Shown: in pieces, positions 50,447-60,316 of the stretch
How positions within the stretch are numbered: position 1 is the stretch's first letter
Layout of the letters: every line of letters begins with the position of its first letter
Origin: Bacteroidota bacterium
GTDB taxonomy: Bacteria > Bacteroidota > JABWAT01
DNA: 64,000 nt
Reading direction: 5' to 3'
Assembly: GCA_013360915.1 (NCBI GenBank)
Contig: JABWAT010000002.1
Span: 62,001 to 126,000 of the forward strand
Translations under genes and position numbers: made by a program
The notes under the pieces: generated by a model
What the model was told of the DNA's origin: nothing
Seen by the model: only the letters and a program-made list of their open reading frames with translations
Databases searched by the model: none

Positions 50447-50519
50447 GCACCATTAGCTCAGTTGGTAGAGCAACTGACTCTTAATCAGTGGGTCCAAGGT
50501 TCGAGTCCTTGATGGTGCA
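50447..50519 (+). tRNA. tRNA-Lys (anticodon CTT)
   Basis: 73 nt: acceptor GCACCAT/ATGGTGC, D arm GCTCAGTTGGTAGAGC, anticodon stem ACTGA/TCAGT with loop CTCTTAA (anticodon CTT), variable GGGTC, T loop GGTTCGAGTCC. CCA is not encoded. The prophage integrase gene lies directly downstream, so the 3' half of this tRNA is the probable integration site. Confidence 0.97.
50490..50519 (+). other. Probable prophage attachment site (attL) at the tRNA-Lys 3' end
   Basis: The tRNA remains intact and the prophage begins right after it, the normal arrangement when a phage carries a copy of the tRNA 3' end. The exact core cannot be set because the second copy (attR) is beyond the window. The T arm and acceptor strand are the usual limits. 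Confidence 0.4.
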
Positions 50520-50538
50520 CACGAAAAAACCTCAAATC

Positions 50539-57750: not shown

Positions 57751-58482
57751 ATGGAAGAACCAGCAAAATACAACATCAATCTCGGAGACCGACCAGTGCA
57801 AACCCTGATCATCCGCGAGGGGAAAGCGCTCCCGGAAGAACACCCGAAGAAGATTGTGATTACCGGTGTCGGGATCGGAGCAATCTCCGCATTCCTCGCC
57901 ATTAAGGAAAATCACAAGTTCATTAAAGAAGGGGCCACTCTGGTGGTGAACCGCGCAAAGGGGACAATGGTCCTTGATGGTGATCCGTCAGCCCCGGTTG
58001 GTGGCCTGGAAATCAAACAGGAAGTCATTCTGGACGAGCGGTTTTTGGAATGGGGAATCAACACCAAGAAGCTCTGGGATAAAACGACCCTGCTTGAATT
58101 TGTCAGGATCCGCCCACATTTCTTTTGCTCGAAACCGGACTATCTGGTACTCATCTCTGCCCTGAATCAGACAAACGCAAAATACTCAGCGATGATCGTG
58201 AACGACAAAGAAGTCAACGGGTCAAAGGAAACACGGAATGCAATCGTTTCCGAGTACAAACCCATTGAATTCACTCTGAAATTCCCGGTTATCGCTGGCA
58301 ACGACCCCATGTCGTTTCTGGTCGCAGTAAACATGGAAATCAGGGAACGGGATTTCAGTTTCTATCTGGAAAGCCCGGAACTGGCAGAAATCCTGTATAA
58401 CGAACGGGAAAAAGCGCTAAAAGGTGAATTGGAAACCGTCCTTTCGCTCAACCTTCCGATTGTGGGAGTTTATCAGAAATAA
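57751..58482 (+). CDS. Unknown 243-aa phage protein
   Basis: Not recognised with certainty; a DUF2303-like phage protein is possible. The sequence has GDRPVQTLIIREGKALPEEHPKKIVITG, a helix-rich LAIKENHKFIKEGATLVVNRAKG, FVRIRPHFFCSKPDYL, and KPIEFTLKFPVIAGNDPMSFLVAVNMEI, then a helical tail. No membrane segment or signal is seen. It ends just before the non-coding RNA-like locus. Confidence 0.65.
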   Translation: MEEPAKYNINLGDRPVQTLIIREGKALPEEHPKKIVITGVGIGAISAFLAIKENHKFIKEGATLVVNRAKGTMVLDGDPSAPVGGLEIKQEVILDERFLEWGINTKKLWDKTTLLEFVRIRPHFFCSKPDYLVLISALNQTNAKYSAMIVNDKEVNGSKETRNAIVSEYKPIEFTLKFPVIAGNDPMSFLVAVNMEIRERDFSFYLESPELAEILYNEREKALKGELETVLSLNLPIVGVYQK

Positions 58483-58488
58483 GTTAAA

Positions 58489-58537
58489 CTCTCCGGTGCC
58501 AGTAAGGGGCAAAAGGGTTCGACCCCCTGCCGGAGAG
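58489..58537 (+). ncRNA. tRNA-like hairpin element lacking an anticodon arm
   Basis: CTCTCCGG (58489-58496) pairs perfectly with CCGGAGAG (58530-58537). Inside are TGCC (58497-58500)/GGCA (58508-58511) with a 7-nt loop, and AGGG (58514-58517)/CCCT (58525-58528) closing TTCGACC, an exact T-loop sequence. The order acceptor, D-like arm, T arm without an anticodon arm recalls a tRNA-like domain. No CCA follows. The 49-nt element lies 6 nt after a stop codon. Structure is seen in the sequence; function is unknown. Confidence 0.5.
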
Positions 58538-58541
58538 CAAC

Positions 58542-58654
58542 GTCTGACTGGATTGTTCTTTTTGACGGGAAGTCGTCCAACCTGTGACAACCCGAAAGCA
58601 ATTGTACGAAAGTCCTGTGAAATATGTAGCAGGTGCCAGTCAGACCCCTTTTTT
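58542..58654 (+). ncRNA. Structured RNA closed by a 10-bp stem and T run, before the helicase gene
   Basis: GTCTGACTGG (58542-58551) and CCAGTCAGAC (58636-58645) are exactly complementary. They enclose 84 nt with further helices: TTGACG/CGTCCAA (58562-58567 with 58574-58580), GTGACAA/TTGTAC (58584-58590 with 58602-58607) and CCTG/CAGG (58614-58617 with 58630-58633). Six T follow at 58649-58654. The helicase ATG is 16 nt further on. It could be a small RNA with its own terminator or a leader that controls the helicase. No known class was recognised. Confidence 0.5.
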
Positions 58655-58669
58655 AATGCAGGAAAAAAA

Positions 58670-60316
58670 ATGAGTATCTCTCCGCTTCAGGAACAAATTA
58701 TTACCGCAGACGACCGATTGCTTTTCGCAATCGCCGGTCCGGGAAGTGGGAAGACCCACACAATCCGGATGAAAACCCTCCGGACGGTAGCGATGGAGGC
58801 CAAGCCATCCATTCTGATCCTTGCATTTAATCAGCATTCTGCTGAGGACATCCGGAAGAAGGTCGGAGCAAAAGCGCAGGTATTCACCTATCACGCATTT
58901 GCCCTACAGTACATCCACTCGAACATTGAGCAATTCCGGAGTATTTCAAAATACCCTATGGGCATCATCCCATCCGTATTAGATGAAGAAACCGAGCAGG
59001 TTCTTATCGCTGAATATTATCAGGCCAGAAGGATCCAGATTAAGAACAAAAGGATCAACCTGGAGTGGGTAAGACAAAACCACCCCAATCACCACAAACC
59101 ACTACTGGCCGAAATCGTTGAACTCGGGCTGATCCGGTTTGATGACCTGATCCCAATGGTAACCAGAATGATCGCGGGACACCCATCAGGATTCAGGTAT
59201 TCCCATGTTTTGATTGACGAAGCTCAGGATAGCAGTCTCGACCAATGGCAATTGGTTGAAGAAATACTGATGGTTAAGACTGTTAAACAAGTCCTTGTTT
59301 TCGGAGACATCGACCAATCCATTTATGAATGGAGATCGGCCGTTCCAAAGCAGGCCATTGAATTCGCATCTGCCCATGAAGCCAGAATCCTCCCGCTGAC
59401 CGTCAGTTACCGGTGCCCGGTGTCGGTGATTAACGCAGCAAACCAAATGATCTGGAATAACAAATTCCGGTTAGAAAAAACCATCCAACCCAAACAGGAT
59501 GCAGTAGCGGGAAGCATCCAGGTAATCACCGCGGATTCATTGGACCAACAATCGTGGTATCGTTTGCTCGACCAGTTGTGCGAACAGATCCTTTCGCAAA
59601 TCGGACTCGGATACAGAAGCATTGCTGTTTTGACCCGGACAAACCGTGACATGGAAGCTGTAAAACGAGCGCTCTCCTCTCACGGAATCGCCATGATTGA
59701 AACAATGGACCGCAGAGCCAACCCGGAAGCAATGGCCCTGTTAAATTTTGCCGAGAAGGTTTTGGAGTCAGAGTTATTTGACCAGACCTGTTCAAAGGCC
59801 ATGCGGTTAATTAATCCTGCCTTCGACCAGGTGGAATTTTACGTCCGGAGCCGGAAGTATGGTGGTGAGATCGAAATGATGAAGGCCGAGTGGCCGGAAT
59901 TGTTTTCCGGGGACACGGAGGCCAGGCTGGACTTTCTCCGGGAAATGTTCGCAACAGCAGGACAGCCCGAGCTTGCTGGTCATGTTCAGGCCATTGTTTC
60001 CGCCATGAGAAAAGCCATGGTGACCAGCATCCAGAAGAAAAAAGTGGATCTGATTGAATTACTGACGGAAACAGAGCAGCAACAAACCGAGGCAGCCATT
60101 GTCCGGGTCAGCACCATTCACGGTGCCAAGGGATTGGAATTTGAAGGCGTTCACATTTTCAATGCAACCGACCGGGTATTTCCAAGCGACAGAGCAACCA
60201 ATATCGAGGAGGAGCGCCGGTTAATGTATGTGGCGATCACCCGGACAATTGTTTCCTGCACGCTGTATGCGCATGGATATCCAAGCCAGTTTATAACCGA
60301 AATGGGACTGAAATGA
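58670..60316 (+). CDS. UvrD/Rep-like superfamily 1A helicase
   Basis: From ATG 58670 (GCAGG before it) the protein has 548 aa. The reading frame is open back to 58424, but that extension runs through the folded RNA locus and is unlike any helicase. SF1 motifs in order: AGPGSGKTHT (22-31, motif I), VLIDEAQDSS (motif II), GDIDQSIYEWRSA (III), SYRCP (IV), STIHGAKGLEFEGVHIF (V) and EEERRLMYVAITRT (VI). It should unwind DNA with 3'-5' polarity in phage replication or recombination. The next gene overlaps by ATGA. Confidence 0.93.
   Translation: MSISPLQEQIITADDRLLFAIAGPGSGKTHTIRMKTLRTVAMEAKPSILILAFNQHSAEDIRKKVGAKAQVFTYHAFALQYIHSNIEQFRSISKYPMGIIPSVLDEETEQVLIAEYYQARRIQIKNKRINLEWVRQNHPNHHKPLLAEIVELGLIRFDDLIPMVTRMIAGHPSGFRYSHVLIDEAQDSSLDQWQLVEEILMVKTVKQVLVFGDIDQSIYEWRSAVPKQAIEFASAHEARILPLTVSYRCPVSVINAANQMIWNNKFRLEKTIQPKQDAVAGSIQVITADSLDQQSWYRLLDQLCEQILSQIGLGYRSIAVLTRTNRDMEAVKRALSSHGIAMIETMDRRANPEAMALLNFAEKVLESELFDQTCSKAMRLINPAFDQVEFYVRSRKYGGEIEMMKAEWPELFSGDTEARLDFLREMFATAGQPELAGHVQAIVSAMRKAMVTSIQKKKVDLIELLTETEQQQTEAAIVRVSTIHGAKGLEFEGVHIFNATDRVFPSDRATNIEEERRLMYVAITRTIVSCTLYAHGYPSQFITEMGLK

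What the first reader, a model, noticed from the sequence alone, without database searches (positions are those of the whole stretch)
58542..58654. Unclassified structured RNA with perfect 10-bp closing stem before the UvrD-like helicase
The closing helix, three inner helices and a T6 run in 113 nt are far from what is expected by chance in a phage genome with almost no spacers. It lies directly after the tRNA-like element, so the two may be one RNA. It could be a riboregulator of the helicase, an abundant phage sRNA or an anti-defence RNA.
Basis: partly seen in the sequence, partly recalled or inferred. Interest (0 to 1): 0.66.

Follow-up and report, generated by a model that had tools for sequence, protein, structure and literature searches.

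The report
Anticodon-less tRNA plus hairpin in prophage
The flagged 113-base hairpin is a one-off long stem with no detectable relatives, but it sits four bases behind a stripped-down tRNA without an anticodon that belongs to an apparently undescribed family of shape-conserved, non-decoding tRNA-like RNAs in phages of Bacteroidetes-type bacteria.

Summary
The hairpin at 58542-58654 exists: a perfect 10-bp closing stem and a T6 run. Only the closing stem is unusual. The whole element folds better than shuffles (z -3.1, 4/1000), but its inner 84 nt do not (z 0.0), and the 64-kb window holds ten such 10-bp inverted repeats. No Rfam match, no relatives, no antisense signal to the helicase start and no scored terminator were found. 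Covariation cannot be tested on a single sequence.

The larger finding is the preceding element (58489-58537), an acceptor stem, T-arm and D-like hairpin of tRNA-Asn type with no anticodon arm. It lies in the 188-nt gap after a diverged DUF2303 gene of an integrated prophage. In 28 of 37 close DUF2303 loci from viral contigs (32 counting looser cases), against 1.6% of control windows, the same place holds a tRNA-like RNA. Acceptor and T-stems covary strongly (100% paired, 10 pairs changed on both sides) and purine73-C74 is invariant. Twenty-one of 22 distinct members lack a canonical anticodon arm.

Best reading: a non-decoding tRNA-like processing module (RNase P / 3' tRNase), with the hairpin as the resulting protected helicase-mRNA leader. 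The family is shown; processing and the hairpin's role are inferred.

The parts
57751..58482 (+). diverged DUF2303/YfdQ-like gene (243 aa); the tRNA-like element starts 7 nt after its stop
   Evidence: phrog_11501; 28% identity to L033 relative, which hits Pfam DUF2303 weakly; the window protein itself has no Pfam hit
58489..58537 (+). anticodon-less tRNA-like domain: acceptor 58490-58496/58530-58536 (TCTCCGG/CCGGAGA, extended by 58489-58537), D-like hairpin 58498-58510, T-arm 58513-58529 (GGGTTCGACCC), discriminator G58537
58538..58541 (+). CAAC: C74-like base and linker between discriminator and hairpin; predicted 3' tRNase cut just before it
   Evidence: sequence; C74 shared by all 22 distinct members; the cut is inferred
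58542..58645 (+). long imperfect hairpin closed by a perfect 10-bp stem (58542-58551/58636-58645); the inner 84 nt fold like shuffled sequence
58646..58654 (+). CCC then T6 run; not scored as an intrinsic terminator; weak alternative pairing with the A8 run of the ribosome-binding site
58670..60316 (+). UvrD/Rep-type helicase gene (ATG 58670, AGG-A8 ribosome-binding site)

Best explanation
The 188-nt gap is an RNA module inside a prophage operon. Its first half (58489-58537) is a minimal, non-decoding tRNA: the acceptor, T-arm and D-like elbow of a tRNA-Asn-type molecule without an anticodon arm. It belongs to a family of tRNA-like RNAs that Bacteroidetes-type phages carry just after the DUF2303 gene. 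The conserved features are those needed by RNase P, the 3' tRNase and the CCA-adding enzyme, not those needed for decoding, so the domain most likely acts as a processing signal. RNase P would cut before 58490, giving the DUF2303 mRNA its 3' end, and the 3' tRNase would cut after 58537. The helicase mRNA would then start with CAAC followed by the 104-nt, 10-bp-closed hairpin, which would protect that new 5' end. Shown: the tRNA-like family, its covariation, its position and the absence of decoding parts. Inferred: transcription, both cuts, and the protective role of the hairpin.
For: 28/37 close DUF2303 loci carry such an RNA within 700 nt downstream, 0/43 distant ones do, 21/1293 control windows; L081, L082, L096 have it about 1 kb away. 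Stems covary: 100% of cells paired against 76.6% shuffled, 10 pairs with two-sided change, 0/500 shuffles. Purine73-C74 in 22/22 distinct members, canonical anticodon arm in 1/22 (a pseudo-arm), 3/3 control tRNAs have one. Many members end about 20 nt before the next start codon. The same TCTCCGG/CCGGAGA acceptor occurs in phage tRNA-Asn genes and in aberrant members L018 (6 of 7 pairs) and L073. RNase P also processes tmRNA, C4 antisense RNA and other tRNA-like substrates, per the review PMC11143913.
Against: No expression data. The hairpin has no relatives, and in most members nothing comparable lies between the tRNA-like end and the next gene, so its role is not supported by conservation. 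L080, L089 and L091 do have a second structured element there, but it is unrelated in sequence. Members with 100-200 nt centres look like more than plain cutting signals. The window's acceptor-plus-T stack may be 13 bp rather than 12.
Confidence: 0.42

Rival explanations
1. The 113-nt hairpin is incidental: a chance 10-bp inverted repeat in a gap that exists because of the tRNA-like gene; it has no function of its own.
For: Inner 84 nt z 0.0, ten 10-bp inverted repeats in 64 kb; no relatives; no terminator, promoter or antisense signal.
Against: The stem fills most of the rest of the gap, starting 4 nt after the tRNA-like domain; by rough estimate such a stem is expected in only about 1% of gaps this long; an extra 104 nt of non-coding DNA in a packed cluster needs a reason.
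Confidence: 0.3
2. The hairpin with the T run is a leaky transcript end after the DUF2303 operon segment; the tRNA-like domain is a small RNA gene at that 3' end.
For: In more distant DUF2303 loci the same place holds ordinary terminator-like hairpins (L107, L110, L112, L155, L156), and L080, L089, L091 have a CCCCGG hairpin with a T run (cut off in the L089 segment) after the tRNA-like RNA (alignment).
Against: Not scored as a terminator; 84-nt loop and a gap of 3 C before the T run; the helicase has no promoter-like site of its own and needs readthrough.
Confidence: 0.17
3. tRNA-like domain and hairpin form one stable small RNA (decoy or anti-defence RNA) released from the operon, the family's variable centre being the active part.
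For: Conserved scaffold with hypervariable centre of 16 to over 200 nt, a pattern expected of RNAs in an arms race; whole gap folds better than shuffles ('both' z -2.95).
Against: The window's own centre is only 16 nt; no target or defence gene found; no expression evidence.
Confidence: 0.1

Closest known systems
C4 antisense RNA of phages P1/P7 (listed as an RNase P substrate in review PMC11143913; further detail from general knowledge)
   Same: a phage-encoded RNA reported to be processed by RNase P
   Different: C4 is an antisense regulator; no Rfam family was matched here and no antisense signal was found
tmRNA
   Same: tRNA-like domain with acceptor and T-arm but no anticodon arm, processed by RNase P
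   Different: no mRNA-like tag; ARAGORN finds no tmRNA and no tmRNA family matched
phage tRNA-Asn(GUU) genes
   Same: identical acceptor TCTCCGG/CCGGAGA with G73, T-arm and U1-A72 pair
   Different: those are full tRNAs with a GTT anticodon; this one has no anticodon arm
YrlA bacterial Y RNA (from general knowledge)
   Same: tRNA-like module plus a separate long stem
   Different: the stem there is Ro/Rsr-binding and encloses the module; no Rfam match and no Ro-like gene was recognised in the genes examined
tRNA punctuation in organelle transcripts (general knowledge)
   Same: tRNA folds used as cutting signals between genes
   Different: there the tRNAs also decode; these do not

Membership tests
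canonical tRNA (RF00005) | acceptor stem plus T-arm with TTCRA loop and purine73 | tested here: met
canonical tRNA (RF00005) | anticodon arm (5 bp, 7-nt loop with T33) | tested here: not met
   (window centre 16 nt); no ARAGORN or Rfam call at 58489-58537
DUF2303-linked tRNA-like RNAs (defined here) | paired acceptor and T-arm, R73-C74, within 700 nt after a DUF2303 gene, no anticodon arm | tested here: met
   window: 7 nt after the stop, all four features; its DUF2303 protein is only 28% identical to L033's
DUF2303-linked tRNA-like RNAs (defined here) | covariation of stems across members | tested here: met
   nine D-arm-anchored members (the window lacks that D-arm and is not in this set; members were found by a scan requiring pairing, one search checks the anchor alone)
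tmRNA | tag-encoding mRNA-like segment | tested here: not met
C4 antisense RNA | match to a curated Rfam phage antisense family | tested here: not met
   no Rfam match at gathering, and at E<=5 only CyVA-1 (E 0.075, minus strand)
RNase P substrate | cleavage at the 5' end of the acceptor stem | not testable with these tools
   needs a cleavage assay or 5' end mapping
intrinsic terminator | GC-rich stem directly followed by a T run | tested here: not met

The most novel reading that the evidence does not exclude
Bacteroidetes-type phages carry an unrecognised RNA class: tRNA scaffolds (acceptor, elbow, T-arm) that hold a hypervariable, non-decoding RNA domain, placed after DUF2303 in the replication/recombination cluster. 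The window shows the extreme case in which the cargo has left the scaffold and follows it as a separate hairpin.
Probability: 0.35. Interest if true: 0.8.

Novelty: new variant of a known kind. Interest (0 to 1): 0.6.

Why it matters
Phage tRNAs are usually explained by codon supply or by escape from tRNA-cutting defences (PMC10264068, abstract seen). A family that keeps the tRNA body but discards decoding fits neither and suggests that phages use the tRNA fold as an RNA processing or delivery device. Annotation tools miss most members or report odd tRNAs with introns, as in the LoVEphage record. Two isolated Bacteroides phages (BI-TP1, BS-TP2) carry members, so the question can be tested in the laboratory.

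Tried and rejected
DNA similarity of the gap to phage records: none; exact-word scan of viral contigs: none; helicase, DUF2303 and upstream-gene single-protein scans of viral contigs: none. Covariance model of the 113 nt: no relatives. CyVA-1 sub-threshold match on the minus strand (E 0.075): rejected, it follows the palindromic acceptor stem. Antisense to helicase start or DUF2303 end: not better than shuffles. An upstream extension of the helicase ORF (open to 58424): rejected, since the helicase profile starts at the ATG at 58670 (residue 2). Decayed tRNA remnant or attachment-site fragment: disfavoured by perfect stems, covariation and recurrence in one place; no second copy of the tRNA-Lys 3' end was found in the 53 kb examined. 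Other R1 hits: L161, L162, L164, L165, L166 look like chance hairpins or coding sequence; L160 is a possible degenerate member. Literature searches on non-decoding phage tRNA-likes and DUF2303 gave no description.

Full report
What was flagged. The window lies in a 3.65-Mb bacterial genome, in a 620-kb contig. From about 50.5 kb it is a prophage: a gene in integrase position beside tRNA-Lys (50447-50520), then recombination and replication genes, with terminase- and portal-like genes further on (identified by eye). A same-family genome with a named record is a 'Bacteroidetes bacterium' MAG (G003, contig JAIUNL010000020.1 with the same 84,294-base length). The gap between the DUF2303-like gene (stop at 58482) and the helicase ATG (58670) is 188 nt (187 non-coding bases), in a cluster whose other genes nearly touch.

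Is the hairpin real? The 10-bp stem is perfect and the T6 run is there. The whole element beats 996 of 1000 dinucleotide shuffles (z -3.07), but with the closing stem removed the inner 84 nt are exactly average (z 0.01). Perfect 10-bp inverted repeats with loops up to 100 nt occur ten times in the window, and many coding stretches fold more stably. So the closing stem is mildly unusual and the inner helices are not evidence. A covariance model of the element finds nothing in 47 loci (best E 0.38) or in 41 genomes (best E 0.58). There is no Rfam match, no scored promoter or terminator, and no antisense signal. The ribosome-binding site is only partly paired.

The neighbour. Four bases upstream ends a small domain, 58489-58537, that folds as a 9-bp acceptor-like stem, a D-like hairpin and a T-arm with the canonical GTTCGA loop. 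A pattern for its 3' half found phage tRNA-Asn(GUU) genes with the same acceptor TCTCCGG/CCGGAGA and G73, and also aberrant versions without a normal anticodon arm: L018 (a Mu-like prophage in the same bacterial family, also found by covariance model at E 2e-5) and L033.

A family after DUF2303. L033 lies just after a DUF2303 gene, as do oddities in phage BS-TP2 (L016) and genome G237 (L014). A DUF2303 alignment brought 80 viral loci. A scan for T-arm plus paired acceptor found a tRNA-like RNA within 700 nt downstream in 28 of the 37 closest loci, none of the 43 distant ones, and 21 of 1293 control windows. L081, L082 and L096 have one about 1 kb downstream and L097 a near copy of L098's. An earlier shuffle control gave 14 hits in 3.2 Mb. 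The window's DUF2303 protein is far from these (28% identity), so its membership rests on anatomy and place.

Anatomy. Using the D-arm sequence TGGCG-AA as an independent anchor, exactly one T-arm per locus gave 7/7 acceptor pairing in all the DUF2303-linked cases that carry this D-arm at the 5' end. Over nine such members every cell pairs, ten pairs change on both sides, and no shuffle of 500 matches that; sliding the partner by 1-3 columns drops pairing to 36-54%. The members were first found by a scan that demands pairing, so this count leans towards the structure; the anchored check and the slid controls limit that. Among 22 distinct members all have purine73-C74, and only one has anything like a canonical anticodon arm, while three control tRNAs all do. 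Purine73-C74 is also found in those three control tRNAs, so it marks the tRNA fold, not this family alone. Centres range from 16 nt (the window) to 223 nt (L100, 254 nt in all). Many end about 20 nt before the next start codon. ARAGORN with introns allowed forces unrelated isotypes on some, and the LoVEphage record calls one 'tRNA-His / tRNA-Undet', joined from two pieces.

How it may work. The conserved parts are the ones used by RNase P, 3' tRNase and the CCA-adding enzyme (general knowledge). RNase P is reported to process tmRNA, C4 antisense RNA and other tRNA-like substrates (review PMC11143913). The best-supported reading is a cutting signal between two operon genes. In this prophage the second cut would leave the helicase mRNA beginning with CAAC and the 10-bp-closed hairpin, a plausible 5' protector. 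Neither cut nor protection was observed. Rivals are that the hairpin is incidental, that it is a leaky transcript end (distant DUF2303 loci have terminator-like hairpins there), or that the gap makes one small RNA.

Known or new. It fails the defining feature of a tRNA (anticodon arm), of tmRNA (tag) and of curated phage antisense RNAs (no match). Searches of the open literature found no description of DUF2303-linked tRNA-like RNAs, but most subscription papers are not in that library. I file it as a new variant of tRNA-like phage RNAs; the flagged hairpin itself stays unproven.

Noticed in passing
L080, L089, L091 downstream of the tRNA-like RNA: a second conserved structured element (GATAGCGCAGG...CCGNRCGGCATCGGTTAGCCGTTGACTCTATCTGAAAGG) followed by a CCCCGG terminator-like hairpin, between the tRNA-like RNA and the next gene
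   Followed up: partly
L100:4787-5040: the longest tRNA-like member, 254 nt, with a deviating T-loop (GTGCAAG) but perfect acceptor and T stems
   Followed up: partly
L160:1501-1555 (G096): a 55-nt tRNA-like element with an acceptor stem and 3' GCAAA between an SSB-like gene and the next gene of a phage-like cluster, but with a non-canonical T-loop
   Followed up: no
L080:425, L081:296, L082:443, L084:296, L104:297: tRNA-like genes, some called tRNA-Asn, with enlarged anticodon loops about 4 kb upstream of DUF2303 in the same phages
   Followed up: no
L087:4764-4941: two tandem tRNA-likes: one with a four-base anticodon call (ggtt), one whose anticodon arm ends in a 4-nt loop GACG
   Followed up: no
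L077:7543-7611 and L083:7845-7915, minus strand: matches to the Bacteroidetes sRNA family FopS (RF04319) inside phage contigs
   Followed up: no
L013:1074-1147: a normal tRNA-Glu(ttc) gene inside or near the prophage, about 21 kb beyond the window end
   Followed up: no
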